Shown here piece after piece: positions 1,847-62,158 of a DNA stretch of 64,000 bases. Under the pieces are notes generated by a model. The model saw only the letters and a list, made by a program, of their open reading frames with translations. It was not told the DNA's origin and made no database searches. Made by a program: the position numbers and the translations under genes. The stretch spans positions 82,368,097 to 82,432,096 of the forward strand of contig CM037590.1 of the NCBI GenBank assembly GCA_021018995.1. The letters run 5' to 3'. Source of the DNA: Chloranthus sessilifolius (taxonomy: Eukaryota; Streptophyta; Magnoliopsida; Chloranthales; Chloranthaceae). Positions within the stretch are counted from its first letter, which is position 1. Each line of letters opens with the position of its first letter.

Positions 1847-1943
1847 CTTGCCGCGGCAAGGAACAGTGCTGGTTGCGGCAAGTCACTTGCCGCGGCAAGC
1901 CTTTAGTGTTGCCGCGACAAGCCTTTAGTGTTGCCGCGGCAAC
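1847..1943. promoter_or_regulatory. Array of TTGCCGCGGCAA palindromes upstream of the element A aORF
   Basis: Within about 100 bp there are two perfect CTTGCCGCGGCAAG palindromes, a variant ttgccgcgacaagc and a ttgccgcggcaacc, plus a half-site ggttgcggcaag. The same family motif recurs in the A LTR at 5126-5192. The array sits about 260 bp before the aORF start codon at 2204, so I infer a control region. No strong TATA box was found between array and ORF. Binding factor unknown. Confidence 0.6.
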
Positions 1944-2203
1944 CATGTAGGGATTTTGTGGGTCCGAAAACCCATTTTTGGTTAGTTTTCTATTGTGGGT
2001 TCTTGTTCTTTTACCTTCCACGCCATTTTCCCTGCATGCATCCCTCCAGATCACGCCAAAAGCAGCTGCATGCCACTGATTTCTTCTTAGCAGCTCTCTA
2101 TTTCCTGTTATCTCACTAATTCCTGCACATTTGGTGTCTTATGAGGTAAAAATCAGAATCCCAGCTCAAGTTTTTTTCTTCTTTATCTTTGAAATTCTTT
2201 AGA

Positions 2204-3547
2204 ATGCCTCCTAAGAAAATCGGGCCATCAAAACCCCCAAAAGCTTCAGCTCAAGCAAAGGGCAAGGGCCTTGCTCCTTCCCATGAACCAATAGATCCAC
2301 TCGTTGAGCACGAATAGCCCATCCCATGGTGGGCTGCGAAGGCTATGGAACCCGAGTGGATCATTGATGATCGCCTACTGACACCGAACGACCAGAATGC
2401 ATGGTCTATTCGGTATATAGAACATGCGATGTTAGACGCCTTATATCAACCATTCCATACCCAGTTTTATCCGCGTCTCGTCCATCTCTTTTATCAAAAT
2501 CTCAAAGTACCACCAACAGTTGGTCAGTTAGAGACTGACATTGATAATAGGAAGTTTTATTTTAATCTACAACACATAGCCCAAGCTATGGATTGTAGTC
2601 ACAATTTTGACGTAAGTTTAGGACTGCAAATGCCAAGGCAAAGAGATGTGAAGTTCCATCACATCATTACTAAAATGACTGATGGGCAGACCTCTTCTGC
2701 TCGTAGCCTGGCAATCCGTCGGAGCCAACTACCACAGAAAATGTAGTTTTTAGATTATATATTTCACTGCAATTTGTACCCAATGCAGCATGAGAGAGAG
2801 CGCAGAGATACACTCTTACAAGCTCTCTTCGCTGTCTATGAAAACTGATGGTTAAATGCCCCGAGGGTAGTATGGGAAGGCATTAAATATGCCAACATCT
2901 ATTTACAAAGCACTGTCTCAAATCCCATGCTATCATGTCCCTATCCTCGCCTGATTACTCGTCTTTTAGAAGGACATTTTGATAGTGTTAATGAAACCCC
3001 GTATCAAGTCCCGTTGGGTGAAGAGGTCCGCACCGATAATATGTGGGTCTTTAGCCCAGCCATATGGAGAAATGTCTGTCAAAGGTCCTCTCAAGCGGTG
3101 AGCAACCGCCAAGCCAAACAAATCTGTCATTCTCCCCAATCTCAACAAGAAATACCTTCAGCTCCAACCCATGACATTCCTTTTCCCCCTCAATCACAAA
3201 CCGAATCAGTTCCTCTGGCACAAGGAACATATACTAATGCTGATTTGGTCCTGCTCATGCGTGAAAACCATGAGCAAACTCTCCTCCAATTCGATAATTT
3301 GTATCGAAACCATTATATGCTCCATCAACGCATAGATTATATTGAAGAAGCAACCAACATCATGATGGAGCATACATTTCAAATCGCTGCAAACCCTTAC
3401 ATTGGACGGGCACGCAATGATGTCTCCCAATATACTGGCAATGCAGCGTTACTGGTTCCAGAGTTCTAGCAAGATTTTCAACAACAGGAAGCTGGTCCTT
3501 CCTCAGCAAGCCAACAACAACCAAATCCTCAGCCTGGTAAAATATAA
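2204..3547 (+). pseudogene. Element A additional ORF (aORF), plant-transposon-protein type (fossil)
   Basis: Starts MPPKKIGPSKPPKASAQAKG, a basic N-terminus. A central region contains YPRLVHLFYQNL and a later block with FLDYIFHCNLYP. It then has a Gln/Pro/Ser-rich stretch and a Met/His-rich helical tail. The YPRLV..FY.NL motif is the kind seen in the 'putative plant transposon protein' domain (Pfam Transposase_32-like), assigned from memory without a search. Element E's aORF has YPRLVKLWYQNL, identical at 10 of 12 positions. Function unknown. It lies between pol and the 3' LTR, an unusual place for an ORF in a Tekay/Del element. Broken. Confidence 0.65.
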
Positions 3548-3850
3548 CCTCACAAGCTTGTAGTTTATATATTACATTTTAATTTTGCATTAACTTGAAT
3601 TCATCTCTAACAAGATTGTCTATTTGTAGTTAATTGTGTCATATATATCACTCATGTCTCGACTTGATACTTGATGTGTTTTATGTAGATTTTAATTGCA
3701 ATTCTATTGGTTTCGTTTAAATTTGGTTGATTATTTGAGGTGTAAATATATACTTTTCTTTTTATTATGTGCCACATATGGTATGGACTAAACTCGTGAT
3801 TGTTAGCTATTAAGGTATGACCTACTGCCCATCATCGTCTCGGTTTATTT
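3548..3850 (+). other. Element A non-coding 3' segment before the PPT
   Basis: AT-rich sequence between the aORF and the polypurine tract. No further gene or repeat is visible. Confidence 0.55.
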
Positions 3851-3882: not shown

Positions 3883-4936
3883 TATAACGATTCTCAGATT
3901 TGACACAGTGGAAATAAGAGTCCGGTTAGGTCAAACATGTTATCTGACGAAAATATATCCCTATAAAAAAATTTATATCCATATCTATATACATTGATAT
4001 ACACTTAGCTACACTGAGCTACACTGAGCTAGATATAGCCACAATAACTTGATAATCCCTGTTTATGGTTTACGTGTAAAAGAGGTACACTTCTCTGATC
4101 TCAAGGTATCAAATAATATGGTATAAATAAAGATGCCTTATACTGGATATATCATCCCAGAAACTTGGTATAGTATAATAGCTTGGCACAGAACTAAAAC
4201 CCTGTTTTAATTTATACATAAGTACAAAGAAGTTAAGTTTAGTACAATAACCTTACACACTAGTCAATTGCTGTTTTAACTTATATACATGACATTTTAA
4301 CTTATACACAAAGACCCTATGTTTAAGTTATATACAAGAGATATTCTTGTTTTGTTTTTTTTTCTGCAACACACTACCTAAGTAGTGGTGACTTACATGG
4401 GAATTTAACTTAGAGTAGCTTATAAGTTACTTGCATGGAAGATTTATTACACGACTCGATGAGTCATGTTATGTGCTCATGCATGCAAGGTGCAGCTCGA
4501 GTTATATAAGGTAGAAGAACCACCTTCTTCCTCCTCCGACCTACTCCCTTAGTAAAAATGGAGCAATTAGCAAATTCAAACAAAACCTTTGGTACATATC
4601 CGAACTCGTGATCCTTAGAACTTGAGTTCACAAAGTGACCTGCCATTGATCATTGACAATCTTTGTTTCAATAAGCTTCGCCTATCTCCGCAGTTGAAAA
4701 CGCACTTGGCAAACACGAGGTTACTCCACGGTTGGTACCACCTTTGAAAAAGCAAGTCTATCAACAGGTACACAAACGAATGTATCAGAATTTATAGAGT
4801 ACTTGATCTGTGGTGTCGAGCATTTACGATCGCATCGACAACACAGATGGGAGTTGCACAAAGGATATAGCATGTTGAAATCCTTTATTCATGCACTTCG
4901 GAGTCTTCGTTGAAGATTTGTAAATGGAAAAAAGTA

Positions 4937-4961
4937 TATATATATATATATATATATATAA
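4937..4961. repeat. (TA)n microsatellite
   Basis: About twelve uninterrupted TA dinucleotides, followed by further degenerate TATATA stretches up to about 5050. Lies inside the A LTR. Confidence 0.9.
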
Positions 4962-5125
4962 ATGCTATGCTCTAAATTTATACATGTATATATATATCTA
5001 CATATAAATATATATCTATATTTTATATAGATATAGATCTATATTGAATATATACAGCAAAACAAGGGAACAACAAGAAGACACCAAAGCCTGAGAAGCC
5101 AAACTGAACCACAGCAAGCTTAGCT

Positions 5126-5192
5126 TGCCACGGCAACCTCAAAGGGTTGCCGTGGCAAGACACTCTGCTGAGTGGCTTGTCGCGGCAACCTC
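5126..5192. promoter_or_regulatory. TTGCC-CGGCAA palindrome array in the A LTR
   Basis: cttgccacggcaacc, gggttgccgtggcaag and cttgtcgcggcaacc occur within 70 bp. The first and second also pair with each other as a longer inverted repeat around ctcaaa. Same family motif as at 1847-1943. Position within the LTR fits a U3-type control region, inferred. Confidence 0.6.
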
Positions 5193-5900
5193 TATCAGAT
5201 GAAGATGTGGGTTGTGTTTTTGTGCATTTCGGACCTTGGATCCATGAAGGGTTTAAGGGATTACATCTTTGGGTTTTAGGCATACAGTGAGCCATCTTTT
5301 GCATGCTAGTGTTTAATATAAAAATATTTTATCATCAATAGGTGCAACATGGTGCACATATCTAGTTCACGCAATTTAGACAAGGGTGATGGTCTTTGAC
5401 GCATGTGCTCCCATCTGATCGAAGCGAATCAGGTAGGGAATATATGGTTGTTTATATAAAATTGAATCATTTGTCATATTCTCATAAGGATGCCAATTAA
5501 TCCTCTTAGAGCAAAACTAATGATGGTAATGAATTACTAATAAACATGCTTCGAGTAACATGTAGACCTCTGAGTGTGATAAACCGAATCAGATAGGATA
5601 GTAAGGAACGAGATTATCAGTTGGTTTGATGAAACTCACATATTAGTTGACCACATGATCAGTACAATTATATTTATGAATATATGTTTGGAAATCCATG
5701 TTTGTCAGAACAGTTTACCAATGGTGCAATTTCAATTGGATAGGACAAAGTATAAGTTGTGCCTAGTCGTTTTATACTGTGATAATGAGATAGAAATGAC
5801 TAGTTGGAAGTAAGCATACCCCTTCTTTGAATTCATACATTGATCATTTTTAAATCTTGTTATCTGTAGTCTCCTTTATATGTTGTTGCTCCATCTGTGT

Positions 5901-5970
5901 CAAGTGATCCCGCTAACTCGGGAGCTTGAGTTATTCTGGTCCAAGTGATCCCGCTAACTCGGGAGCTTGA
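5901..5970 (+). repeat. 29-bp direct repeat with internal hairpin in the A LTR
   Basis: caagtgatcccgctaactcg followed by ggagcttga occurs twice exactly (5901-5929 and 5942-5970), spaced 41 bp start to start. Each unit contains a small TCCCG/CGGGA stem. Role unknown. Confidence 0.85.
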
Positions 5971-6200
5971 CCTTGTTGACTCCCTATTTTCGTCTGCATG
6001 TATATCTTGTTTCAGCTTGATTTCTCATACCTATCGCATCGTGCATAAATTCAGTACATCAGCATGTTATAATAATCATATGCTTTAATTCAGTTATGCT
6101 TCTACATGTGAATGTGATAAAATATCAATGTATGTGAACAAGATAATATTCTCTATTGAGCTTTGATGATATCTCATTCCACGACTTAAATGTCTTAGCT

Positions 6201-6308
6201 GCAGAGCCTGATTCGAAGCATGCTGCAGATCCTACGTACGTGCCCGATGAGGAAGAGGGAGAAGACGACGAGGAAGACGATTTCGCCGAAGAGTTCTTCC
6301 CAAAATAG
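6201..6308 (+). other. Short acidic reading frame inside the A LTR, possible old exon end
   Basis: A 35-codon open frame ends in a strongly acidic tail (PDEEEGEDDEEDDFAEEFFP) and a stop codon. It is preceded by a pyrimidine-poor tract ending in tgcag, which could be a splice acceptor but is weak. Codon composition looks protein-like, unlike its surroundings. It could be the terminal exon of a transcript crossing the LTR, a captured host fragment, or chance. Unproven. Confidence 0.3.
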
Positions 6309-6674
6309 GTTTGTGGCTTGGGAATGTGAGGAAAGGTAGAGAGAGAAGGGGAGAGATAAATTTTAGACAGGTATAAATGATATATGGTAGTTTTAGATAG
6401 ATGTTGGGATGTATAGGTTTCCTTTCCACTGTTTAGATGACGGGTGGCCGTCATTAGTGGAAAGCTATACATCTGATCTTTTATTATGTTTATATTGTTG
6501 CTAGTTTTCCATCAGTTATTTTCCATATTACCTATTGTCAGAGTTAGCACATTGCTTCCTTAATTGCGTCACTTTAAAACAAAGAAATAACCCCTTTGAT
6601 GAAAGGATCATGTCAGGTGATCCGATGGCGCGACCTTTCTCAGTATAGAGACAGGAAAACGTCGGGTTGTCACA

Positions 6675-9391
6675 TTTACAGTCCTATCATTAATTTCTGT
6701 ATGTAACCCTCCGAGTTCAGAACCAGTCCTTAATCATACGATCTGATTTTCTGATTTCGGACCCGAATTCAGTCCTAAAAGTTTTTTTTTAATTTCAATT
6801 TCTTAGTTTAATACCTCCAAAAAACCAAAAAAATATTAATTTTAGTTTTCATAATTCTAGCCATAATTCAATTCACTCCTATTGGTTCGAAATCAACTCT
6901 GAAAAGCCTAAAAATATTACTTTACCATCCAAAATTCAATTTTTTTTTCTTTTTAATCTCAGCCACCCGATTTGCCTAAGAGAGCTTACGGAGGGTACTT
7001 GGGAACGAGGCCAATCCTCCTTAGCATAGTGGGCCCAAACCTTTTTTTTTTATATTTTTTTATAGAATTAATAAATTACTTTAATTAGTTTATATGTTGA
7101 CATAATTGATTATTCGCATTAATTAGGCTTTGATATAATTATTAGTGTTAAATCAAAATTTCCTTTCCATTAGTTAATTGATTATTTCAAATCCGAATTC
7201 TAGGAAATTTAGTTTATTCATGATTAGTTATATTTCACCATCATAAATCCGTCAATAATTAGGGTCGTAGATTAATCAGTCCTTTTGTTTCTATTGATAT
7301 TATAATAGAAAATTAAATTTATTGCTTTAATTAGGCCAGTAGAAAAAAATCAATCTTTTTATTTCAATTAAAATTATAGTAGAATTATTACGAGTGCTTT
7401 AATTAGAATTATAGTAGAATTACTACAATTTCTTTAATTAGAATCCCAGTACAATTAGCATGCTTAATTTTAATTAGAATATTATTGGAACTGACATATG
7501 CACTCCTAGTACCAATAGGAGATTGAAACCGATTGGACTTTTAGTAATATCAGAACCTTAATGCTCACTAGACTCTTGACAGCATCAGAACACTAATATA
7601 ACTCACCTTAATAACCCTACACAACCAGAGCATAATAATAATAGAATTGGGAAATCTAAACTGATCGGAATTATAATTACAGAGGGAAATAAGAGGAGAA
7701 TTAAACTAACTAAATTAAAGAGAAGCATTGCTGCTGACGTTCGCAGGCGGATGATTCAGTATAGAAGTAACCCACACCTGCTTTACAGTATGATCACTGA
7801 CGTGTTGCAGCATCGTTAAATATCTGCAGCTGGCAATCGCAATCAAACTAGGAACCTTCCTAGAAAAATCCCCCCTTTTATATATGTATTTTGTCATTCC
7901 AAATACCGCATCGCTAGAGTCCATCTGGACAGAATTGGAGCCATTGATTCAACAGGATCGGAGAGGAGCCCAGAAAAAGCGCGCACCAACACAACGGTGG
8001 TCGATTGTTTATTGATGAAAGTCCGAAAATTCGGTCACTTAGGCTATACCACGTATAGTGGATAGATCTTGAAAACCCTATCGAAATTGATTTTGAAAAG
8101 CGTGATTTTTGTAAAATTGATTTCTGAAAAGAAAAGGATTTGAAAAATATAATCATTCTCGAAAATTTAAGTTTGATCGGATGGCTCTCCAAGCCAACCT
8201 AAATTTGTTAGATAAAATGATACCCGGCTAATGGGGTAGTATCGACAAGCGACTCATGCTGATTAAATCAATAGAAAGAACCCAAAATAAGACCTCGATG
8301 GATCTAGGACTAACCTAAAATCATCCTGGACCGAGACCCGAAATATATGGCATGAGATGGACCACCAGGTGTACCCCATCGATGGCCCAAATCTGTAGGC
8401 CTTGCAGCCCACAACAGTTTGCTCTCAGACGAGAGAACAAAATAAATTGAAATAAATTCTAAAAAATTCCTGAAAAAATTGTTAAGTTAACGGGTTCCCA
8501 ATACCCAGTTAAATATTCAGACCTTGACTCGACGTGTTTTGAAAGTTACGACACTCGGAGCACAAGGCAACGAATCAGCCCTGTTGCACAAGAAATAAGA
8601 GCCCTCGTAGAGCTATGATTTCCGTGATCAAGACCTCTTCAAAAAAATTTGGGATAAATCAAGGTAAAACCTTGACCTGTCCCTAGGACTTGGGTAAAAT
8701 TTCACGTGATAATTCTGTCAGGATTATCGGCTGAAAAATTTGGAACATTGTGATGCAAAACTATGTTTCATGCCACCCAGTCAGTAACCAAACTTGACCT
8801 TTGATCAGATGGACCTGATTCCATCATGATACTTTGACTTTTGACCACCCAAATATAAAAAGAAACATTAGATAACTATCTGAGCTTTTCAGAAAGTCGC
8901 TGAATGTCCGATTGCGATATCGACACTAAGAGTTAGAAACTTGACACTACGGCCAAATAAATATCCCCCAATAACCTGACAAAGGAGGACAAATCTCAGC
9001 AATTTGTCGACCATGATCAATTATGATCATATTTTTGAGTGCCACCACCTGGGAAGGATTCGGTTACCGACCCTCTTTCACCCAATTTTTGTAGGACTCA
9101 AAAATTAGATCGGAGTTAAAAATGGAGAGCAATTTTCGCAAGGTGTTCGACACACTTGTGGAGAAATCTACAATTTGAAGATTTTAGTCAAAACTTTGAC
9201 TTCACCCCGAGACCCGTGAACATCTGGGTAATACCAGATCATAGTAGTTACTGTGAGAACAATATGTGATGGGACCTATGTTGACTTGGTTAACTGAGTC
9301 ATTGGACCGAACCCTTAGAAGGCCCCAAAGGCCTAAATACTAAGTAGTTGGTAAATAAAATTTTGTTAAGGCTCGACTACCCGACCATGGA
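6675..9391. repeat. Element G, left part: old LTR-like sequence split by element C
   Basis: No coding capacity recognised. From about 7990 to 9391 it aligns loosely by eye with 14340-15400 of element D: shared order of phrases such as gatggaccacca, ggcccaaa, atgcagccca/tgcagccca, atgatca and gacccgtga. It is a diverged relative of the D LTR. It stops at the TSD of element C and appears to resume at 24543. AT-rich from 6675 to 7700 with nothing recognisable. Confidence 0.5.
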
Positions 9392-10832
9392 TGATCATTT
9401 ATAAATAGAAACCTTTCAAGTGCACAAGTTTGGATGTACTAAGGTAAGTACAAGGGTGTCGAACTATAAGAATTTGTTGTTTACCTGATATAACTTTTAT
9501 TTTATTCTAATATAAATGTATTAAATTAAGTTTCCTAAATAAAATAAAATAAAATAAAAAGAAAACCTAAAATAGTTTTGAAATAAGAGAGGAGAAGGCA
9601 GTATGGGATCTCTCTTGGATCTCAGACTCGTATATAATAAATCCTATTTCTCTTCTATTAATGAATCCTAGGTACCCCCGCTCCAAGCTACAAGCTCTGT
9701 CGCATCGTATATGGATTACGCAAGTCTAATCGTCAAGGCATCATTGCACGTAACCAACTAAAACTACCCTACAAGGCTTAGTTCGTCGGTGAATATCCTA
9801 TCTAGTCTAACCCCAATCCCTACAAGGCCACTGAGAATAATCCAAACAAAATTACAACGTTACCATCGCGTTCTCAATATATTCGAAACCTCCAACATGC
9901 AATTGAACCATAAATGGAATTCAAAAATAGAAAAAAAATAGAACTTTATTATATACTTATCCGAAATTTACAAGAGATCCCAACCTGAGCACGTTTAGCC
10001 TTGCATCGATCCAGAGACTTTCATCATTGCTGAATCGGTCTTTGATCGATGATTACAGTCAATCTCCCTCTATCTCATAGATAAACTAACCTAAACTACG
10101 AATACTCACGCCAGAAACTCTCTAGAAAAGTCTGTCGTGGGAATTCCCTAAAACATAACCCTAGGGACCTTATTTATAGAGTATAAGGAGCCTAGAAAAA
10201 TTATACACGACAAGTTTCTCTCCACAATCCCTAAAAATCAGTTGGAGGAAGAAGAATCTGGAAGGAAACTGAAACGCCAGAGTAAATCTAGCTGGAAGGC
10301 TGATTTTTCATGTAAAAACTCTGTTGTAACCGGTCAAACTAGATTCTCGACCGGTCAGACTTCAGATTAATTCTTCAGGTCACATGTGCTTCGCAGGTCT
10401 TCAGATTTGTTTGACTTCTTGACCGGTCAAACTGGTTGTGACCGATCAACTTTATAAGCTGATGTATTTCTCTTATGTTTGCTTTGGTTTTGACCGGTTG
10501 ATTTTATGTTTCTGAAGCTTCTGAGAGAGCTGACCGTTGAAATTGCTATTTTGACCGGTCCATTTAGGTCCTTTATTTCTTCTCTATTTTCCTCCTAAAC
10601 AGTTCTCTACTGCGTGTTCTTAACTGGTCAAGTTTGCAATCTCAACCGGTTAAAGGGACCTTTCTGGGCATTCCTTCAACCGATTTCTTCTTGGATTTTT
10701 TCCAAAGCTTCGGGTTTCATCTTAACTTTGCTCTTTTAACACAACACTAACTAAAAGCGTCCATTAGTAGTTAAATGGGAGCTAACAAGGCAGAGATTTT
10801 GGTCAAAAGTACTCCATTTTAGAGGCCGATCA
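9392..10832 (-). repeat. Element C 3' LTR
   Basis: Ends TGATC at both edges and is adjacent to a PPT on its right. It carries the ACCGGTCAA motif array at 10328-10685 and, on the minus strand, a TATA-like CTATAAATAAGG near 10171-10182. It matches 23111-24542 along its length by eye. A short (AAAAT)n run is near 9540. Confidence 0.82.
10328..10685. promoter_or_regulatory. TTGACCGGTCAA motif array, C 3' LTR
   Basis: At least eight full or half sites: aaccggtcaaac, cgaccggtcag, ttgaccggtcaaac, tgaccgatcaac, ttgaccggttgat, ttgaccggtcc, actggtcaag and aaccggttaaag. They are spaced tens of bases apart in either orientation. The same motif recurs in the other C LTR and upstream of the C aORF. Confidence 0.65.
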
Positions 10833-16380: not shown

Positions 16381-16579
16381 TTTGATCTAAAACGTGTGCT
16401 TGACTAAAACTCTTGCTTGATCTAGAACTTGTATTTGTGCTTGAACTCATGCTTGAATGAGAATGTGTACTTGAGCTTGATCTTGAACTCGGAAGCGAAC
16501 TCGAGTACGTGAACACTTGAATGCTTGAGTACTTAAATACTTGAACATTTGAATACTTGAATACTTGAACACTTGAATA

Positions 16580-19504: not shown

Positions 19505-19815
19505 CAAGACCAGTCGAAATGAGATTTTGGTCGGTCAAAGGGCTTTATATAGTCCTCAGCCCGTGGAATTCGATTGATCGAAACCGTTTGACTGGTCACA
19601 CAATGAGAGAAATTTTAATTCTCCAAAAGGGCTTTTGTTTTGAAGAAAAGGTCCCCCATCTCGATCGATTGAAATCTATTTCGGCTAGTTAGAACACAGC
19701 AAAATAATAACATAAACTCTGGTTTCTGCTGTATTCTATAATTCGACCGGTTGACACAAACTTGACCAATCGAAATCCGCTGCATTTCTTCCTTCTTGAT
19801 TCCATCGGTCAAAAT
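19505..19815 (-). promoter_or_regulatory. ACCGGTCAA motif array and TATA box upstream of the C aORF
   Basis: Sites include accagtcgaaat, ggtcggtcaaag, gattgatcgaaacc, gtttgactggtcac, gatcgattgaaa, cgaccggttgac, ttgaccaatcgaaa and atcggtcaaa. On the minus strand TATATAAAG (19543-19551) lies about 255 bp before the putative start at 19291. The motif is the one found in C's LTRs, so this looks like a second copy of the LTR control module. Confidence 0.6.
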
Positions 19816-31929: not shown

Positions 31930-32085
31930 CTTAGTTGCGCCAGGCAAATATACAGTAAAATAGTGCCTGGAAGTTGGTTCGCGAGGGTGGGCCCCACCTT
32001 TAACCTTAGTGCAACTAATAGTTATGCCAGGCTTAAAATCTGGGAGAATTGGCCTGGCGCAACTATTAGTTATGCTAGGCAAAAT
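31930..32085. promoter_or_regulatory. GCGCAAC...GTTGCGC motif array in the Tat 3' LTR
   Basis: ttagttgcgccagg, gtgcaactaatagttatgcc, tggcgcaactattagttatgc and similar. The ideal dyad is GCGCAACTAATAGTTGCGC. Equivalent arrays lie in the 5' LTR (61535-61740) and in the leader (59523-59695). Confidence 0.65.
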
Positions 32086-46842: not shown

Positions 46843-47102
46843 CACCTGCAGTTGAGTATGTATCATATGTATATTTTGCTTCTGTTTTAGATTTTTTTTA
46901 CTTTGCATCTCTAGTAGAATTCTTTTGCAATAAATATGCCATGTTCTCTAGTGAGTCGCCTTTTCAAATTTGCCAGCTGCTCTAAGATAAGGGGAGCTCA
47001 TCCACATAAAAATCCAATCATAGGGCCGCACAACAACAGAGCCTGATAAGTGCTGAAGCTAAGGGTGCCCAGAAATGCAGCTTTATCTGGGTTTTAGAGC
47101 CT
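46843..47102 (+). other. Element E segment between protease and motif array
   Basis: Non-coding, no RT motif. The phrase gaataaatatgcc and a short A/T-rich stretch could act as a 3' end for the gag-pro transcript, but no clear signal is seen. Confidence 0.5.
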
Positions 47103-47475
47103 TCGATAGGCCTAATCTACATTTCGTTAGGTTTCATGGTGATTTCGACAGGATATCTAATGGTTTCGATGGGAACTGGATGTTTCGACAGGTAAAACCA
47201 ACTGCTCAACAGATTAAATAAGGGTAAATAAGGATTTCGATAGGTGCTGAGTACATATCGGGCACCTATCGAAAAGATGTTGTCTCTGCCGTTTAAACCT
47301 ATCGATAGGATGGTCTCACCTATCGAAATCCTTAAAAATCATCCCTTTTGAAAGCTTTGATGTCTAAGCTTTCGATAGGACGCATCAACCTATTAAAACC
47401 ATTCCATTCATCCTATCGAAATCGCATTTTCACCTATATATACATGTCGATAGGTCATTTGTGCTTCATTCCTTT
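47103..47475 (+). promoter_or_regulatory. Internal control region: CTATCGA array and TATA box upstream of the E aORF
   Basis: At least twelve sites (cttcgataggcc, tttcgacagg, tttcgataggtg, acctatcgaaaag, aacctatcgataggat, cacctatcgaaat, tttcgataggac, tcctatcgaaatc) end at CTATATATACA (47434-47444). That is followed by a cctctgaaaaaccctagctc-type 5' UTR sequence and the aORF start at 47755. One site, cctatcgatagg near 47298, is a complete dyad. The region copies the LTR logic without being an LTR copy by sequence. Confidence 0.7.
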
Positions 47476-47754: not shown

Positions 47755-50615
47755 ATGGATGAGCCTGAGGAAAGCAGCTAGCCATCTGTAAAATCAACTG
47801 CATCCACCCCTAAAACCTCCAAGAAAGCGCTACCTGCTACCAAACCACCTGTAAAGAGGAAGCTCGCTGAGGGGACACCCAGAAAGAGTCCTAAAGCTAA
47901 GAAAGCCAAAGCTGTTGAAATTCAGAAACCTGTGGTAGAAACACCCTTAGAGAGAGCTACCCCTGATAGGCCCATTGCTATAGAGCTTCCGACTATACTA
48001 ACCACCCCCAATGAATTTGTTGGCAAGTTAAACCTTGTCCCTGAGACCGAATTTGATCTGGCATATTTTGCCAACATTGGAGAGTGTCAGGAAACACTGA
48101 GCTATTTGAAGAAAGAAGGCTTGTTGCCCCTACTGTCGCCATTGAAGGAATCATTGTATCCCAGGCTGGTGAAGTTATGGTACCAAAATCTGAAGAAGAA
48201 GGCGGCACAGGGGACTGATGATGTATTAGAAATTCGATTGATGATTGGCAACTGACTATCGATCACAGAGACATAGGAATGGCTTTGGGGGTCCCATACC
48301 AATTTGACTCTAACCGCGCTGAGGGAGTACCTGTGGGAGCTACATTTAAGGATATGGCCAAGCAGCTAACCAATGGGATTGTGGGTTCTAGAGAATCACT
48401 GATGAGAAGAGACCTCCATCCTAGTCTCAGATTTATGGATACCATCTTAAGGAAAAATGTCTATGTTACAGGACATTTGCAGGAGAGAAGGTCCCCATTA
48501 GTGGATGCTTTATTTTATTGTTCCAAGGGGCAATTCGTGAATGCACCTAAGCTGATCTTTGAAACTATGGTGGACATAAATGACAAGGTGCTAAAAAGAT
48601 AGGCTTTTGCTAAGGGAGGAGGCCTACCCTTTAGGAGACTCATCACCTGTCTGCTCAAAGCTGGAAAGTATAGGATCAAGGAGGCTGAGCCAGTGGATAA
48701 AATGGCTCAGAAGGTTTTTGGAAAGAGGGCATGGTCTACAAGTTTAACCCTGATTCAAAAGACCAAGCCGGTTGAGGCAGAGAAGGAGGTGCCCACTACC
48801 TCAGCAGCAGATCATGCTGCTGACATTCCCCCATCCACCATTCCTCCTACATCACCCACTTTTCATCCACCTTACCTACACCATCACCTACACCTGGGAT
48901 CCTGGAACTCCCCACCTTCTCCGAGCCTGTCCCCACCATGTCTTCCCCACCCTCCCTCTAACCCCTTCCTGATTTTCCCCCTCCACCACTTCCTATACAT
49001 ACACAGGGTTTTGACCAGTTCACTTCTACTGGTTTCTCTGCCCCCATTTATTCAATTGTGGAGGATGTTGCTCATGAGTACACCCCACTTCCTGACTCCC
49101 CCCACACCACTCCTCATTTTACCCATGCCCCATCCTCTCCTTTCCATCCCATTCATTCACCCATCCCCTCTACTTCCACCCTGCCTGATACTTTCACCCA
49201 AATCCTCTCCCTCCTTCAGTCCATTCAGGCCCAAGTAGCCACTAACACTGACCACCAGGCCCTCATGAGCTCATGTCCCCAATCAATTCAATCCACCCTC
49301 ACTCCCCCCACTTCAGTCTCCCAACCTTTTCCCACTTCTCCTCCCTCCCCTGATCCCTCCCTTTTCCATTTCTCTCCTCCCTTTTCGCCTATGACCTCCC
49401 CCATCCCTACTGATATCCTTTTTGTAGAGTTAGCCGCTCTATCTTTACCCCCACCTTCCCCCCAACACCTGTTCTACCTTTATCCCCACCTGCACCTGTT
49501 TCTGCAGTTGCTGAGATACCCACCACCCATTTCCCCTTTTCCTCCCCACCTATTTTTCAGGATGCCTCCACCCAAACTGATCCATGGGCCCCTCCTCTTC
49601 ATTCACTCCACCCTTGTCCTTGCCTCTTGTCCCTCACCAATCCATGTACATTCCCCCCTACCTCACCCTCCTGTACACAATGAGAGACAACCCTTACATC
49701 CACAGGGATGTCTTGAGAGGTATGGCTGCACTTCGGGCTTCCCTTGAGGCCCCTTATGAGGAGAGGATTGCCAACATCGAATTAGAACATCGAATCCAGC
49801 TCCGCGATATCTCTCAAGGATGGTCTGAAATTCTGGTTCGATATAAGTCAGCAAAACAAGTGGCAGCGGCTGAGAGTCTCATTGCCAAATATGAGAAGAA
49901 GAATTTTGAGCTCCTCAAGAAAAAGTTAGCCAATGCTCAGGAGATCATCAAGGCCACCAAGGAGCTCTCAGATGCTAACCTCCTCTATGCTACAAAGAAG
50001 ATTGATATTTTAGATAAAAAAGTCGCGTCATTGTTGTCTCAACCCTTTGAGCCTACCCCTCTTGCTACAGCACCTCCTGCTGTGCCTCCCTCCCCTCCCC
50101 CATGTCCCCCCTCTACAACTATTCCTTCACACCCCACATGGATGTTCCCCCTCCCACGCCCTCCTCCAAAGACCTCCGCCTGCAACCCTCCCACCCCACC
50201 TGCGGAGGTTCCCCCTCCCCCACCTGCCGAAGTACCTCCATCGGACAAACCTATCCCTCCCAAACAGAAGCGGACTTCCTCCAAAAGAACCACCACAGCC
50301 AAGAGATCTGCTTCTTCTGCTCCTGCTATCAAAAAAGGAAAACAACCTGTTGCCCCATCCAAAGCAGCTAAGCCCACCAGGTCCTCCCCTCATTCTGACC
50401 CCCATGGCACCCTACTCACTAGGGATGAAAGAAGAAAGGCTACTGCAGCTCTAGGACTAGACCCCATGGCCCTTTTCCCTTCCGATTCAAATTCAGATCC
50501 TACGCCTGCGGTTGATCCTAAAGGCAAAAAGCCTGCTGCCCAGTCTGAGGAGGCACGCGCTAAACAACCTAAGCAATCCAAATCCAAGGGCAAAGCCCCT
50601 GCATCTAAGTGGTAG
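47755..50615 (+). pseudogene. Element E additional ORF (aORF): plant-transposon-protein-like, Pro-rich, coiled coil, basic tail
   Basis: Starts MDEPEESS in a basic Lys/Pro-rich N-terminus (TPRKSPKAKKAKAVE, nuclear-signal-like). Then a domain with YPRLVKLWYQNL and IDHRDIGMALGVPYQFDSN, resembling the 'putative plant transposon protein' domain (from memory). Next about 300 codons of Pro/Ser/His-rich low complexity, a coiled coil (EERIANIELEHRIQLRDISQ ... KKNFELLKKKLANAQEI), and a Pro/Lys-rich tail ending KGKAPASKW. Homologous to A's aORF by the YPRLV motif. It may be a nuclear or RNA-binding accessory protein, but function is unknown. A few breaks. Confidence 0.7.
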
Positions 50616-52397: not shown

Positions 52398-52417
52398 AAA
52401 GCTTAGGTTTGGGGGTG
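52398..52417 (+). other. Element E polypurine tract
   Basis: aaagcttaggtttgggggtg immediately upstream of the 3' LTR start TGTTAAGTGG. Confidence 0.85.
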
Positions 52418-54536
52418 TGTTAAGTGGTGAAAAATGCCACTTTGCACCCTTTAACCTGACCTTTCATGGACCTGTGAACACACTAATAAGCCCCTCTTGA
52501 GTGCAGTTTGTAGATAGCAGGGAAAGCTGGTAATAATGCAGCAAACCACTTAAGAATGCCCACAAAGAAGCCATCTCTCAGCAAAGGACGAACTCAGCAA
52601 TAGTACACCCAAGGGTAGCACATCATTGAACCCTTAGAGCGCATGGCTGCAGCAGGGAAAGGTGAAGAAAGTGAGAATAGGCAGAAAACTTCCATCGATT
52701 GGTCACCTGAAGAGTTCGATAGGAGATGAAAGCATTGAAAGGAAGGAATTCATGCAGTTGAGAAGGTTTCGACAGGATCAAAAGGCAGAAAAAGGAAGAA
52801 TTCGTGCAAAAGTGAAGAATTCGATGGAATCCAAGAACCTATCGAGTAGTTGAAAGAGAAAGCGAAACCATCCTATCGAAAGCGTACCTGAAGCGTAAAA
52901 GGAATCTATCGAATGATGCTTGAACTTATCGAGATGAAAGTACTGGAACATAACCTATCGAATGGTGATTGAGTCTTTCTATAGGAGTAAGAGCAATCCT
53001 ATCGAAGGGATAGCATGCAGAAAGGAACCTATCGAAATGGTTCTCCAACCTGTCCAAGAGCCCTTTCAACTTGTTGAATACTCTAAACCAAAGGCTGAGA
53101 AGGTTGGAACTCTAACTGAAGGCTCATCCTATTTGAACCTATCGAACAGTTCTGAGAACCTGTCGAAAGGAACTACAAGCTCACTTTTAACCTGTCGGAA
53201 GCTCTTCCAACCTGTCGAAATCGTGTGTTGAACTTCTCAGAAACTATGCTATGCACACACTGAGACTTGGTGACCTGCTACACGCAAACCGAGGCACTTA
53301 GGTGACCGGCGAGACATTCTAGAAAATACCCTAGAAAGCCCTAACCGACCCATGCGCTCTAACAGAACTCTAACAAACTCTGACGACCTTTTAGAAGGGA
53401 TTTTTGGTGGGAAAAATAGAGGAGAAAGCTATATATAGAGATCCCCAATTGCCATTGAGGGAAATTGAAATTCTGAGCAATTTTCCAGAGATTAGAACTT
53501 GCAGCGAGATTCCATTTCCCTCCTTTAGCCCAACCATGGTTGGCTAAATCCCTAGGAGCAACAAGGAGTAAGTTAGATCTATAATTGGGTAAGGTTCAGA
53601 GTGTTGCTGGGGTTAATTGCTGCACAGACTACAGATCTGAGAGCATTCCATTGTAAATGTTGTTTTCAATATTTTAATTAGATTTAAAGCTCTTTTGATT
53701 CCTTTTGGTGCTCGATCGGATTTGTGTAGAGGAGTTGCTTGATCAGCTCACCCACTTAACTGGTAGACCTCTTGGATATCATCTGAATTCCCTAGATTTG
53801 ATATCCCTGTAATTTCCTACGTCTGTGACCTAGAAATTGCAGCATCTATAGTGGTTCTAATTATTCTAATTGAGGCTCTGGCTGTATAGGAGATCTATAG
53901 GATGGTCTGTGAGCATTAAAGTGGACAGATCATAACCTTAAGGTAAATCTGAGCTCAGGCCTCAATTGGATTCATCTGCTGCAAACCATGGATTCGATAA
54001 AGCCTATAGGATGGTCTGTGACCATTAAATTAGACAGATCATAGCCTTAAGGCCAGGTAGATCCTGCGATTTGAAGTGGAATTTATACCCTGCAGCTGTG
54101 CCTGTGGCCAGCCGAGGGACTTGTGTGCTTTTGAACCCCTATAATATGCTTAGCTCAACCTGATTGCAATGAAAATAGCCTCCAAGCTATTCTTCTCCAT
54201 CTTTTGAGTTTTTAAACCTTCCATCTGCAAGATTTGCGGCTCCAGATTCGATCTAAGATAATCTGCATTTTAATTGTAATTAGTTTAAGTGACAACCCTA
54301 TCCAAACCTCTCTCTTGTCTTTAACTAAAGTAGAGATAGCTAGGGTGCCAGATCTCTTACAGATCTGGAGATTTATCATATTTCTAACCAACCTCCCTGT
54401 GGATATTCCCTTACTTACCATTCTTTTAAAACTTGTTACAACAAATCCTGAATACTTGCAGGTCTGTATGAGTATGTCTGCCTAGTTTTATTATTGATTT
54501 TAGACCCTCATTTGAGGGTAGGCAAACATCCCAACA
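52418..54536 (+). repeat. Element E 3' LTR
   Basis: 2119 bp, TGTTAAGTGGTG...CATCCCAACA, then TSD TGGAG (54537-54541). Carries the same motif array (about 52690-53222), TATA box (53429-53438) and CCATGG palindrome (53524-53548) as the 5' LTR. Confidence 0.93.
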
Positions 54537-54863: not shown

Positions 54864-56119
54864 TGATCGATTTTAAATTAACCCTTGCAAGTGTACAAGA
54901 TCTGTTCTAGTAAGGCAAGAACAAGGGTGTCGAACCCACAGGGAAATCTGAAACTTTAATCAATTCTTCCTAGAGATTTAGAAAATATCCCCGAGGAAGT
55001 ACCAAGGGGCAGATTTAATTTTTACCAAAAATTAACACTTTTTCTAATTGCAAGAAAGAAAATAAATTAATCTAAAAATTATGTAATGAGAAATCTAAGA
55101 ACAAATTTTAAAAACAAGATCAAGGAATTTGCTACCCCAGATTTATACCCTTTTCTATTTTTAAACCCACAATTTTATTAACATCAAACGCACCATCATT
55201 CTAAGAGAAACATGACTAGTAATTAAGCATGATCATTAACCCGGCATACCCTATCTAAAAACAATGACTCAGCCTAATCGCGGTATGAATCATGTGAAAA
55301 GCATAGCGTATCTCATGGTATTTTAGATCAAAACAATAAAAACATGATCACTACACTTTGAGAAAAACGATTTGATGATGAAATTATCAAACTATGGCAT
55401 TAAACATAAAATATGGGTACTTATCTGGGGATCGCATCCTCCTTGATCTACAGCCTTTAGCCTCTCATCCTTGGTGCAAGATCTTCAATTTCATTCAAAA
55501 CCATTCCCAAAGTAAAGAGCAAAGAAGGTGTAAAATAAAATATGTTCTCGGAAAATCTCAACACTCTACAAAAGTCTCTCTCGGCAAATTATTACACAAA
55601 AATTTTCTAAGAATCAAAACTCTTCTCCAAAAGCCCCTCCATTCAAAAGCCGTAGCCTCTCTTTTATAATGGCCGAACACACCTAACCCTAATTGCCTCA
55701 ATCGATTGAGACAGAAGTCTCAATCGATTGACTTTGAGTTCGAATTCCCTTAGGGAACTTCTGCCTTCATGTCTCAATCGATTGAATTTCATGTCTCAAT
55801 CGATTGACTTTCTAGGGTTGAGTTTTACTCCATCTGTCAATCGATTGACAATAATGCCTCAATCGATTGACTCTTCAATGCAAAGTCTTCCCTTTCTTGA
55901 TGGAAGTTGATTCTCTTCATGGCTTTCAATGCTTCTTTGGACCTTTTTGTCCATAGCTCTTTTATAGCCTTTAATTTCCTTCTTTTATGCACTTGAACGA
56001 TCTAACTGTCAGAAACACCTGTAAACATCAAAACTTCACAACAGCCATCAAATACTTTCATCGAACTGCTAAGTGTAGGGTTTAAGGTATGAAATATAGT
56101 CATATTTCAGCACCGATCA
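54864..56119 (-). mobile_element. Solo LTR F inside Tat gag
   Basis: 1256 bp, TGATCGATTT...CACCGATCA, flanked by GGGGT at 54859-54863 and 56120-56124. Minus-strand start TGATCGGTGCTGAAATATG resembles the starts of C LTRs, so it is probably an Athila-type family of its own. The sequence near its left edge (cttgcaagtgtacaag, aagaacaagggtgtcgaac) closely parallels the C LTR end. Contains the CTCAATCGATTGAG array. Confidence 0.88.
55693..55875. promoter_or_regulatory. CTCAATCGATTGAG palindrome array in solo LTR F
   Basis: Seven copies within 180 bp: ctcaatcgattgag, ctcaatcgattgac (twice or more), ctcaatcgattgaat and gtcaatcgattgac. Nearly all are complete dyads centred on ATCGAT. Confidence 0.75.
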
Positions 56120-59121: not shown

Positions 59122-60519
59122 TGTGCCGGCACCACCAACTATATATTTTTTGAGTTTTGATTTGCTTATTATATATATATTTTTTTATTTTTGGAAAAAG
59201 TTTAAAAAAAAAAACAAAAGGTTCCGAGGCCTTGGAATTCCCTTTTCGAGTGGCTCTCGTACCTTAATTCAAGACTTGCGGCGACGACTCCGACGCACTT
59301 CTGAAGAATCGAAGGAGAACCTTTGATCTATTAAAGGCACAAAAGTCAAGGCGAACAACCCTATCCCTCGAAATAAGCCAAAAAGAAGTTGCCCTCTCTT
59401 GACCGACAGGGGCGTATTGGGTGTTAGAGTTGGCGGAGCCCAAACAAGGCACTAAGCACACTAATCGGGGGACTCGGGAGGTGAACAGGGTCACTGATTC
59501 AGGCCGGTGCTGTGTAGAATAGACCTGGCGCAACTAATACATGCGCCCAGGTTGCAGGGACACTTTTTTACACTGGCGCAACTATTAGTTACGCCAAGGT
59601 AAAAAGTGGGATTTTAAAGTTGGTGCAAACTATTAGTTGCGCCAGTTATAAATTCCAGCTTTTTGTACTAGCGCAATTAATACTTGTGCCAGGCAAAAAG
59701 TGCTGCTCTAGATCTGATGATAGCAGGCACCAACACCCAAAATGAGTCTCTTTTTTTTTATTTTTGTGGAAGCTAGGCTTCCGAGAACTGAGCTTTTTTT
59801 TTTTAGTGATTGGTTCTCTCCTCACCACACCTAAAGGATTTGAGTGCGGTATAACTCGCTAGCGCGCTCCCCAAGGGTTTTAAGCTTTGGAATGGGAACC
59901 CACTAGATATACCTCCGGCACAAGCGCCTTCTCAGATACTAGGTGAGCTGAGACTTTTCTGGATCATCACCACTAAGGGCTGCCGCCATATTAAGACCCG
60001 GGTGGTTGTATGTGTGCCTAAACCCAACCCTTTGAAAATCTACCCTTAAAAAATAAATTGATTAAGCTCCCTAACTTGGTTCAATTTTATTTTTTTTCAA
60101 AGCTTTTCTTCTTTTTCTTTGGAAGTTTTTTTTAGTTCAAAGATCAGGGGTGATGATCCCGTGCCACCACTACGGGCCGGCATCCACTGTTGGGATATGA
60201 GTACACAAGTAGGCCTGTCAATCGGCTAAGGCACTTTAAATGACAGAAAATTAAATAAATTAAAAGATAATGCTCAAGTAGGCCCGTCGATCGGCTAAGG
60301 CACTTAAAATGACAGAAAAGTAAAAAAATTTAAAGACTATGCACAAGTAGGCCCGCCAGTCGGCTAAGGCTCGTAAATGACGTAAAAGTAGGGGTAAGTA
60401 AAGTGACTTAATCGGAGGGGTGAGTGAAAAAAATAGCAAAAATAAAAATAAAAAAATAGTAATAAAAGGTTAGGAAAATAAAAAAAAGGCCTAGTTCAAG
60501 GGGAAGCTCTACTAGCTAC
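59122..60519 (-). other. Tat 5' leader with motif array and 69-bp tandem repeat
   Basis: 1.4 kb between PBS and gag. No ORF. It contains GCGCAAC dyads at 59523-59695 and a 69-bp tandem repeat (60206-60274, 60275-60343, partial third to about 60395; unit begins caagtaggcccgtcgatcgg). Several T and A homopolymers. Confidence 0.65.
59523..59695. promoter_or_regulatory. GCGCAAC...GTTGCGC motif array in the Tat leader
   Basis: ctggcgcaactaatacatgcgcc, here as ggcgcaactaatacatgcgc, then tggcgcaactattagttacg, tgcaaactattagttgcgcc and agcgcaattaatacttgtgc. Four dyads in 170 bp. Same motif as in both Tat LTRs. Confidence 0.65.
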
Positions 60520-60537
60520 TCCCTAGCAGAGGCGCCA
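60520..60537 (-). other. Tat primer-binding site
   Basis: Minus-strand TGGCGCCTCTGCTAGGGA begins two bases after the 5' LTR end (TGTACA at 60540-60545). By family precedent it pairs with a tRNA 3' end, tRNA-Arg in Ogre, but I cannot confirm which tRNA here. Confidence 0.7.
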
Positions 60538-60539
60538 TC

Positions 60540-62158
60540 TGTACAACCGTGAGATTTTTTACGATCCCATCGCGGCGATGCGCTCGCTTGCAAAAAAAAT
60601 ATAGAGTCGCCACCCGGAGCTTTTGGTGTCCCGAGATACCTATATCATTTTTATAAGCACCGAAGTGCCACAAATATGACTTTGAATTTGGTCCACACCA
60701 AAGGCTCTTGGGTAGGGGCTTCGGTTATCGATCGAAAGGTGTTAGGCACCCGATAAACCCGCTTAACGCGGTCTCTACTAATGACCAAAACAAAAATAAA
60801 ATAAAATAGCTTTCTCTTGCCCAAATGGGCCTTAAATCTTATTCGTGCCCCTCCGTTCCTACAAAAAATTCGGCAGCATAACGACACAAATGGGAAGACG
60901 GGAGGAGCCAAAGAAGAGATAGGAGAGGAAATGGGAGAGTTGGAGCCCTCGGGCCCTTGTAGCACCGTAGAGGAGTCTTGCTTGGCTTTCTTTGATGAGC
61001 TTTTGAAGACTTGTATTGTATGGAATGGGCTAAGGCTTGAAGCTAAGAGGTAGAGAAGGAGGGCTAGGGGTCACACACACCTAACCTAGAGGCTTTTCAT
61101 GAAAGGCAAGGGTGGGAAAGAGGTTTTTGAATTATGGTTTTTGTATGGGGAGTGTGCACCAAAGGAAGAAAGATCTTCTCACTTTAAGCTCTTTCTCTCT
61201 TCGGTAAAAATTCTCAACCCTTAAACCAAGGGGTGGGGGTCTATTTATAGGAAATGGGTGGATTAGGAGACCACTTAGGTGATAATTGGAGTTAGCAATT
61301 AGGTAATCTCACATCTAAGGATTCCTAGGATTTTTGGAGCCTTGAAATGTGTGAGAAGGTCCTCCAATGGTGGATGATGGGGAGAGGCCTTAAGCCACTT
61401 AAAGGGTTGCAAATAGGTAGTGAATGGGTACAACAGAACTAGCAAAACACAACCCAAGGATCAAGGTGGTCAACAAATCAAACCCCAATCATGATTTTCG
61501 AGATAAAATCTAGAGGTTACTGTTCATATGTCTGGCGCAACTAAAAGTTGTGCCAGGCAAATATACAGTAAAACAGTTTTAAACAGTGCCTGAAAGTTGG
61601 TTCGCAAGGGTGGGTCTCACCTTTAACCTTGGCGCAACTAATAGTTACGCCAGGCTTAAAACCTGAGAGAATTGGCTTGGCGCAACTAATTGTTGCGCCA
61701 GACAAAATTATAATTGGCGCAACTATTAGTTACGCCAAATCCCTAGGGGGGCCCACATGAACTTACATTTCTGCCCTCTGAGCTCGGTTTGCCATATCAT
61801 TTCATGTATACCTCCGATTGGCATGATTCTTGGACCGTTGAAATGCTGATGACTTCTACTTTTTAATGGTATGAGATTCGATTATAGTAGATTGCTATAG
61901 CTAGTTTCGGTGCACCCCTCCTCATCCATAGCTTGATAAGGTTGGGTTTAGGCTCAGGACGGGTTCTAAGGGTCGGGATTGATTAAAGGTTCGGGGCAGG
62001 GTCCTAAGGGATCTAGGGTGATTCCTAAGGGTTTGGAAATAGTTCTTAAGGGTTCTAGGGTGGTTCCTAAAGGTTCCATACATGCCATCAAAAGCTTGTA
62101 AGTGCACCTCTCTCGAAAGGTGTTTCAATCGGGCCTTGGCCAAATTTGGATGTCTACA
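60540..62158 (-). repeat. Tat 5' LTR
   Basis: 1619 bp, + strand TGTACAACCG...GTGTCTACA, then TSD TACTC. Holds the GCGCAAC array at 61535-61740. Around 61520 it preserves the site (gaggttactgttca) into which solo LTR E' inserted in the other LTR. Confidence 0.92.
61535..61740. promoter_or_regulatory. GCGCAACTAATAGTTGCGC dyad array in the Tat 5' LTR
   Basis: tggcgcaactaaaagttgtg, tggcgcaactaatagttacg, tggcgcaactaattgttgcg and tggcgcaactattagttacg. Four dyads in about 200 bp, the third close to perfect. Confidence 0.7.

What the first reader, a model, noticed from the sequence alone, without database searches (positions are those of the whole stretch)
1847..61740. Six retroelement families each carry a different dyad-symmetric motif array in the LTR
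Seen directly: TTGCCGCGGCAA (A), TACGATCGATCGTA-like (B), TTGACCGGTCAA (C), ACCTATCGATAGGT half-sites (E), CTCAATCGATTGAG (F) and GCGCAACTAATAGTTGCGC (Tat). Each is repeated about 3 to 20 times over 70-550 bp, and each contains CpG. Sequences are unrelated between families, including between close Athila-type relatives, while copy number, spacing and placement are alike. Inference: arrays of binding sites for a DNA-binding protein under rapid turnover, or RNA hairpins, or CG-methylation targets. A conserved plan with a non-conserved sequence points to a coevolving partner, either a family-specific element protein or a host repressor. I know of no standard annotation for this.
Basis: partly seen in the sequence, partly recalled or inferred. 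Interest (0 to 1): 0.88.

Follow-up and report, generated by a model that had tools for sequence, protein, structure and literature searches.

The report
Retroelement families with private DNA-motif arrays
Families of jumping genes in this plant genome each carry their own short mirror-image DNA word, often repeated about two helix turns apart in the promoter region and again before an extra gene of their own, which suggests that each family may have its own DNA-reading protein.

Summary
The arrays are real. Four families have true dyads (A, C, F, T); B and E are mostly half-site arrays. Eight of nine LTR relatives of A, E, F and T found elsewhere also carry them. A's motif occurs 4891 times in the 2.17-Gb genome against 13 for the reversed control. 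Array A at 1848 is not in the LTR: it lies between pol and an accessory ORF; the LTR array is at 5125. A, C, E and T each carry their motif twice, in the LTR and inside the element. In A and E (and F elsewhere) the inner array precedes an accessory ORF of Pfam family PF20167. Sites of A, C, E and F often sit 20-22 bp apart (two helical turns) although motifs differ; an independent 200-kb sample shows the same. Upstream of 16 PF20167 ORFs the motif, where present, follows the ORF's clade. Best reading: binding-site arrays for a family-specific dsDNA-binding protein, most likely the PF20167 protein (inferred; no binding shown). Precedent: Sirevirus (Ty1/copia) repeated motifs of 2010, in LTRs and before the env-like gene. 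New here: Ty3/gypsy families, two-turn spacing, motif-ORF association.

The parts
1848..1942 (+). A internal array, TTGCCGCGGCAA: 5 sites (3 perfect), spacings 22,17,22,22; between pol and accessory ORF
2204..3466 (+). A accessory ORF, PF20167-like, broken by in-frame stops
   Evidence: E 8.4e-8 with X at the stops, 32.7 bits, below the curated cut-off of 45
1..1157 (+). A pol 3' part: integrase zinc-binding piece (1-261) and Tf2-1-type SH3 piece (837-1157)
5125..5188 (+). A LTR array: 3 sites with 1 mismatch each, spacings 22 and 30
3887..6675 (+). A 3' LTR (both ends set by eye; purine tract before 3887)
   Evidence: by eye; relatives of its parts
10326..10653 (-). C 3' LTR array, TTGACCGGTCAA: 9 sites at up to 3 mismatches, spacings include 21,21,22
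23995..24322 (-). C 5' LTR array (9 positions at up to 4 mismatches, 6 at up to 3)
19506..19812 (-). C internal array (6 sites at up to 4 mismatches, 5 at up to 3), TATATAA at 19551
   Evidence: PF20167 not detected in the ORF that follows
20915..21140 (+). B LTR half-site array TACGAT/ATCGTA
25710..25920 (-). B LTR half-site array (inverted copy)
42065..42563 (+). E 5' LTR array, CCTATCGA half-sites, spacings include 21,21,20,21,21
52691..53222 (+). E 3' LTR array
31141..31644 (-). E array in a further, inverted E LTR copy at 29814-31919
47099..47454 (+). E internal array, same motif as the E LTR, TATATAT at 47435
47756..48599 (+). E accessory ORF pieces, PF20167 family
   Evidence: 4.5e-19 for piece 48222-48599 with a profile built from this genome's PF20167 copies; Pfam itself only 0.071
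55698..55870 (-). F LTR array, six perfect TCAATCGATTGA, spacings 22,54,22,41,22
61533..61737 (-). T LTR array, 23-nt dyad, 4 sites, spacings 37,48,97
32007..32077 (-). T array remnant in the other T LTR (2 sites)
59526..59691 (-). T internal array in the leader before a gag-like ORF, 4 sites, spacing 47-48

Best explanation
The arrays are cis-acting binding-site arrays for a sequence-specific double-stranded-DNA-binding protein. It probably binds as dimers or higher oligomers on one face of the helix, which would explain dyads or paired half-sites about two turns apart. Each element family keeps its own motif at two non-homologous places, the LTR promoter region and a spot inside the element. 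In the PF20167-bearing families seen here the inner spot is upstream of the accessory gene. The likeliest reader is that accessory protein, which would regulate its own element (activation or anti-silencing) in a family-specific way, as VANC proteins do for VANDAL transposons. Shown: arrays, repetition of the motif within elements, spacing rule, motif conservation without spacer conservation, linkage to PF20167 clades, purifying selection on the ORF.
For: Own-motif enrichment and family specificity. Genome-wide: TTGCCGCGGCAA 4891 against 13, ACGGACGTCCGT 9483 against 14 for the reversed controls. Spacing 20-22 bp in 14 of 40 neighbouring sites of A, C, E and F against 2.7 expected, with spacers in C and E about as alike as shuffled ones. 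Independent 200-kb sample: 37 of 90 spacings in palindromic clusters against 10 of 106 in other repeat clusters. Remaining window spacings phase at 10.5 bp (p 0.003-0.04) and not at 21 bp (p 0.78-0.94). Same motif in LTR and internal arrays: A, C, E, T in the window, A in 5 of 5 other copies that hold the ORF (in L007 the LTR has one site only), F in L032. Motif follows aORF clade upstream of PF20167 ORFs. In the ACGG clade 6 of 9 sites are exact in both L034 and L040, whose pS is 0.73 and whose motif-masked arrays give no BLAST hit. dN/dS of the domain 0.07-0.51 in 11 pairs, 10 of them at or below 0.32.
Against: No binding, expression or methylation data. T follows neither the 20-22-bp spacing nor the aORF rule (its inner array precedes a gag-like ORF). 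C's ORF gave no PF20167 match. Three of 16 PF20167 ORFs (L033, L035, L045) lack an array, two of them although a 98%-identical relative has one. Motif exactness is not uniform in the ACGG clade: 1 of 7 sites exact in L037 and 1 of 9 in L038, the rest within 2 mismatches, and some pairs do give short masked BLAST hits. A TATA box right after the inner array is not general: 5 of 17 against 17% at random points. One clade (L041) has a dyad without CpG. aORF similarity and motif similarity correlate only weakly across 7 clades (label permutation p 0.014, rank correlation 0.20). No DNA-binding fold could be assigned to PF20167. Motif-clade agreement inside a clade is partly shared descent.
Confidence: 0.55

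Rival explanations
1. Host transcription factors read the arrays: families have captured strong host binding sites (for example C contains W-box-like TTGACC, F an HD-ZIP-like CAAT..ATTG; both resemblances recalled) to be expressed under stress or in a tissue.
For: Tnd-1, listed among the Ty1/copia Sireviruses, carries ACAATCGATTGT, the same 10-bp core as F. B, E and F share ATCGAT. The Sirevirus paper's PLACE search mainly recovered stress-related sites.
Against: Many different motifs, two of them counted genome-wide with hundreds-fold excess over the reversed word; the motif follows the clade of an element gene; the inner copy stands before that gene in A, E and F.
Confidence: 0.25
2. Host silencing targets: CpG dyads attract or resist methylation, or a host repressor recognises them.
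For: CpG observed/expected is 0.61-1.40 in 13 arrays against 0.50 for the window outside them. Low-conservation LTR CpG islands in Del elements were proposed as a 'moving target' (passages read).
Against: The CpG measure is partly circular because the motifs contain CpG, and in two families the LTR array is not above the rest of its own LTR (C 0.73 against 0.82, A 0.61 against 0.64). A motif conserved over near-saturated divergence is not expected of a target under host attack. CpG is not obligatory (L041).
Confidence: 0.1
3. RNA hairpins in element RNA (packaging, or siRNA precursors as proposed for maize Sireviruses; that paper is recalled, not held).
For: Five of seven folded stretches (A, C, F, T LTR, T inner) fold better than all 200 shuffles each (z -4.0 to -8.4); the E inner array gives z -2.76, 1 of 200.
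Against: E LTR z -1.56, 12 of 200; E and B are half-site arrays. Two-turn and 10.5-bp phasing is not predicted, and a 21-nt register is not seen in the remaining spacings. Stable folding is automatic for palindromes.
Confidence: 0.07
4. Neutral expansion of short repeats by slippage or template switching.
For: Some A and F neighbours share identical or near-identical spacers.
Against: Dispersed repeat clusters in the unbiased sample are palindromic far more often than random positions (13 of 34 against 214 of 3716, p 3e-8). Motifs are kept while spacers are lost. The same motif stands at two non-homologous places.
Confidence: 0.03

Closest known systems
Sirevirus (Ty1/copia) repeated motifs, RM boxes (PMC2829016; passages and section 9 read)
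   Same: Palindromic, CpG-bearing, many copies in the LTR upstream of TATA, and additional copies upstream of the env-like gene in the elements that have one. Tnd-1's motif shares F's core.
   Different: Ours are in Ty3/gypsy-type elements; the window motifs lack the CGG-CCG core in the published arrangement; half-site versions exist; two-turn spacing and association with PF20167 clades were not in what I read.
VANC / VANDAL anti-silencing system (PMC5735166 passages; PMC10398659 abstract and outline)
   Same: Element-encoded protein, family-specific motif arrays in non-coding regions, rapid divergence between families, high local site density.
   Different: VANDALs are DNA transposons; the VANC21 motif YAGTATTAY is arrayed in one orientation; binding and loss of methylation were shown there, nothing comparable here.
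Accessory ORFs of Athila/Tekay/Retand elements (PMC11728184, PMC11963269, PMC7264820: passages)
   Same: Transposase_32 (PF20167) similarity of a sunflower Athila 3' accessory ORF with predicted nuclear localisation; Retand accessory proteins predicted to bind DNA.
   Different: No cis motif linked to them in the passages read. In A the PF20167 ORF sits 3' of pol in a chromovirus-like element, whereas the sunflower paper describes 5' accessory ORFs for Tekay.
Plastic 5' CpG islands in Del LTRs (PMC4029996; passages)
   Same: Variable, CpG-rich LTR region near the promoter in a chromovirus lineage.
   Different: No dyad arrays described in the passages seen; the word 'palindrom' does not occur in that paper's main text.

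Membership tests
Sirevirus RM boxes | Many dyad-symmetric copies in the LTR upstream of the TATA box | tested here: inconclusive
   Dyads or half-sites in LTRs: met. A TATA-like word follows the array in element orientation in C 3' LTR, the three E LTRs, F and T 5' LTR, and in B; for A several TATA words lie on both sides. Not tested against chance for LTRs
Sirevirus RM boxes | Extra copies upstream of the env-like/accessory gene | tested here: met
   A and E in the window, A in 5 of 5 fetched copies with the ORF, F in L032; T's inner array precedes a gag-like ORF instead
Sirevirus RM boxes | CGG-CCG core (12 of 13 published RMs) | tested here: not met
   Window motifs have other cores; ACGGACGTCCGT elsewhere does contain CGG..CCG
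Sirevirus RM boxes | Host element is a Ty1/copia Sirevirus | tested here: not met
   A: integrase H2C2 and Tf2-1 SH3 pieces; E and C: Retrotrans_gag pieces that match each other; lineage names beyond that are recalled. F and B have no coding part in the window
VANC-like self-encoded anti-silencing | Family-specific motif arrays in non-coding regions of the element | tested here: met
VANC-like self-encoded anti-silencing | Element-encoded protein binds the motif and removes methylation | not testable with these tools
   needs DAP-seq/EMSA and methylomes
VANC-like self-encoded anti-silencing | Sequence homology to VANC | not tested
   no VANC comparison was run
PF20167 (Transposase_32) | Pfam match of the A accessory ORF | tested here: inconclusive
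   E 8.4e-8 but 32.7 bits against a cut-off of 45, with X at stops; all 150 scored genome copies are above the cut-off
PF20167 (Transposase_32) | Match of the E accessory ORF | tested here: met
   4.5e-19 with a profile from 16 genome copies; Pfam's own model only 0.071, 13.4 bits
PF20167 (Transposase_32) | Match of the ORF after the C inner array | tested here: not met
   piece 18815-19402 has no match and is not among the hits

The most novel reading that the evidence does not exclude
Plant Ty3/gypsy LTR retrotransposons run private, self-encoded regulatory or anti-silencing systems. A PF20167 accessory protein under purifying selection reads a clade-specific dyad, as two-turn-spaced oligomers, at its own LTR and its own gene, and motif and protein switch together between clades, so that elements stop cross-activating one another. 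This would be an LTR-retrotransposon counterpart of VANC, and would give a function to a large uncharacterised plant protein family.
Probability: 0.42. Interest if true: 0.92.

Novelty: new variant of a known kind. Interest (0 to 1): 0.8.

Why it matters
It turns an open question into a bench test. [quoted passage not shown] Here several PF20167 clades come with a predicted DNA target, so a binding assay with swapped arrays can decide it. If right, it explains why LTR promoter regions of relatives look unrelated yet share a plan, and gives a candidate function to a protein family with 13,856 first-look candidates (150 scored) in this one genome.

Tried and rejected
Homologues of the A accessory ORF in the large protein set: piece 2849-3466, none of 43 candidates at E <= 0.001; X-marked whole ORF, none of 2226 at E <= 10. 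PDB by sequence: nothing convincing for A or for the 15-sequence profile (best E 1). AlphaFold2 of the E piece: mean pLDDT 36, not used for any claim, and no fold search made. Internal TATA promoter as a general rule: rejected, 5 of 17. Reading of decay between LTR partners: in C 15 of 15 differing columns in 7 sites have the consensus base in one LTR, but in E the partner explains only 1 of 23 mismatches (control 0.02), so 'once perfect' holds for C only. A motif code from aORF similarity: suggestive only. F pair pattern: 0 in viral contigs, 2 bacterial contigs in genome contigs, not followed. The genome search answered three times and otherwise gave no answer, so genome counts for B, C, E, F and T are missing. 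Literature: 9 full-text searches; their listings showed the Sirevirus and Del papers, and I saw none whose title, abstract start or opened passages join dyad arrays to PF20167 or report two-turn spacing in plant LTRs. I opened 9 papers in part only. The maize Sirevirus palindrome/siRNA paper is recalled; its DOI is not held.
Full report
What was claimed.

The observation. Exact words: TTGCCGCGGCAA 3, TTGACCGGTCAA 2, CAATCGATTG 6; three of the quoted words do not occur exactly. The window holds 22 perfect CG-containing palindromes of 10 bp or more; 12 of them are sites of A (3), C (2), E (1) and F (6). A blind scan of all 10-bp palindromes against 80 block-shuffled windows gives at most 6 per 400 bp for CG words; C and E reach 8, F only equals 6, T reaches 5, and A and B are not among the 60 words printed. 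Own-motif counts exceed all 200 dinucleotide shuffles in 14 of 15 stretches, B_LTRm being the exception (the script's header says 500, it ran 200). The cross-table shows each motif densest in its own family, with a background of single hits elsewhere. C's inner array also holds 3 F-like and 2 B-like sites.

Anatomy. LTR pairs are C 9392-10832/23111-24542, E 41783-43937/52410-54536 with a third inverted copy at 29814-31919, T 28804-32516/60538-62158, and inverted B copies. B, C and E share a short homologous stretch close to one LTR, so they are relatives. A's array at 1848 lies after integrase and SH3 pieces and before an ORF; a purine tract and LTR start follow near 3887 by eye, and a second A array lies at 5125. 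E has a gag and a protease piece, then a second array of its LTR motif at 47099-47454, then an ORF; no RT or integrase match was seen among the eight E pieces scanned. C has decayed sites at 19506-19812 before an ORF. T has a second array in the leader before a gag-like ORF. So in all four families whose interior is at least partly in the window, the LTR motif recurs inside the element; B and F are represented by LTRs only.

The accessory ORF. Pieces of the A and E ORFs match each other (E 1.8e-5 and 1.2e-4 in an all-against-all of 1185 pieces; one further pair of pieces gave no alignment). A, with X at its stops, matches PF20167 at 8.4e-8 but under the curated cut-off. A profile from 16 genome copies finds the E piece at 4.5e-19 and A pieces in the window and in L003, L004, L005, L007 and L008. 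The genome has 13,856 first-look candidates for PF20167; 150 were scored and all passed the cut-off; 0 of 14 control genomes ring. Domain dN/dS is 0.07-0.51 over 11 pairs (10 at or below 0.32); two further pairs were saturated.

Spacing. With sites of up to 3 mismatches, 14 of 40 neighbouring spacings in A, C, E and F are 20-22 bp against 2.7 expected from random placement; at up to 2 mismatches 7 of 25 against 1.4, at up to 4, 21 of 50 against 4.0. Spacers in C and E are about as alike as shuffled ones (C LTR 0.31 against 0.28 +- 0.02, E 0.27 against 0.26); some in A and F are identical or nearly so and reflect recent duplication. The other spacings phase at 10.5 bp (p 0.003-0.04 depending on the cut) and not at 21; at the 3-mismatch cut a 10.0-bp period scored better than 10.5. 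An earlier version with hand-dropped sites is; there single arrays were significant except C's inner one (p 0.13). T has 47-48 and 37 bp and does not fit.

Beyond the window. TTGCCGCGGCAA: 4891 places against 13 for the reversed word. ACGGACGTCCGT: 9483 against 14. Among the first 50 places listed, neighbours within 130 bp are 20-23 bp apart in 6 of 13 and 9 of 20 cases, and clusters follow each other at 1-10 kb 9 and 6 times against 0.19 and 1.64 expected from random scatter, a null that ignores clustering of elements. Ten stretches were taken because they hold the A motif; five contain the ORF, and in all five the order is pol, array, ORF, LTR site or sites (one site only in L007). In 20 stretches at fixed coordinates (200 kb), 13 of 20 hold a CG-dyad cluster of at least four sites after I set aside TA-repeat words by hand; 1 of 120 shuffled stretches does. 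Dispersed repeat clusters found without regard to symmetry are palindromic in 13 of 34 cases against 214 of 3716 random positions (p 3e-8); 20-22-bp spacing is found in 37 of 90 neighbours in these and 10 of 106 in the others (p 2e-7).

Motif and ORF clade. Upstream of 16 PF20167 ORFs that I picked from 150, 11 have a CG-dyad cluster of four or more (mean match at least 10.3 of 12) within 1.7 kb, against 15 of 100 random pieces. Seven share ACGGACGTCCGT (L034, L036-L040, L048) and three TCGATTAATCGA (L042, L044, L047). L046 and, below that cut, L043 have weaker CCTCGCGAGG-type arrays, and L041 has the CpG-free GTGGTTAACCAC at 22, 22, 22 bp. L033, L035 and L045 have none, although L033 and L035 are 98% identical in the domain to L036 and L034. 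L048 also holds four TCGATTAATCGA sites further upstream. Among the seven ACGG loci domain identity runs down to 58%; between clades it is 42% or less. Between L034 and L040 pS is 0.73, yet 6 of 9 sites are exact in each, while motif-masked arrays give no BLAST hit. In L037 and L038 only 1 of 7 and 1 of 9 sites are exact, the rest lie within 2 mismatches, and some other pairs give short masked hits, the best at 5.9e-8 (L039-L040). F motif and a PF20167-like ORF are joined in L032: sites 7392-7885, TATATAA at 7382, ORF 7206-6697 (6e-13), and an F-type LTR with sites at 2604-2680. Weak ORF matches in L021 (0.005) and L030 (0.009) also have arrays about 1 kb upstream.

Mechanism. Dyads or paired half-sites at two helical turns, kept as motifs while spacers drift, are the footprint of an oligomeric double-strand DNA-binding protein. 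That each family repeats its motif at two non-homologous places makes a trans-acting reader of one specificity per family the simplest cause. That the motif follows an element gene which it precedes makes this gene's product the best candidate. Whether it activates, represses or blocks silencing cannot be told from sequence. The internal TATA idea failed as a rule. RNA folding separates A, C, F and T from shuffles, the E inner array moderately, the E LTR array not.

Relation to what is known. Sirevirus repeated motifs (PMC2829016) have the same plan: dyads, CpG, upstream of TATA, and extra copies before the env-like gene in the elements that have one; the authors called them a Sirevirus-specific feature absent from the classic retrotransposons they compared. 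The present elements are Ty3/gypsy-type with other motifs, so this is a wider variant. VANC/VANDAL is the closest working model. A sunflower paper reports PF20167 similarity and a predicted nuclear location for an Athila accessory ORF. In the listings of my nine full-text searches and the passages I opened I saw no paper joining such ORFs to motif arrays; the library lacks most subscription journals and preprints.

Limits. One genome, unnamed; about 300 kb of it read; A copies ascertained on the motif; PF20167 loci hand-picked; relatives not independent; B and C not found elsewhere; no functional data.

Noticed in passing
window 57864-58196: 24-bp tandem array with GGGCCATGGGCCC; it lies in the T gag-like ORF and reads as a repeated GPMAQTHQ-type peptide, so it looks like a coding repeat and not a regulatory dyad array.
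   Followed up: partly
window 15772-16815: Long degenerate array of AACTTG/TACTTGAA units with a 34-bp higher-order repeat, inside the C interior; satellite-like.
   Followed up: no
window 19911-19924: TGGGAGGCAACCCA hairpin-like word (minus strand) between C gag and its inner array, the only copy in the window; recalled as common in related elements.
   Followed up: no
window 43938-52409: E interior has gag, protease and accessory ORF pieces but no RT or integrase match among the eight pieces scanned, so E looks non-autonomous.
   Followed up: partly
window 60204-60390: 69-bp tandem repeat (2.7 copies) in the T leader near the primer-binding end.
   Followed up: no
L001 3649-3682, L002 5233-5266 (GTDB bacterial contigs): A pair of TCAATCGATTGA with a 10-base spacer also occurs in an Acidobacteria MAG and in Geothrix rubra.
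   Followed up: no
L041 764-841 (element orientation): A PF20167 locus whose array GTGGTTAACCAC has exact 22-bp spacing but no CpG, arguing that CpG is not the essential feature.
   Followed up: partly
L014 4750-5094: GGGTTCGAACCC cluster of four sites in an unbiased stretch, element not identified.
   Followed up: no
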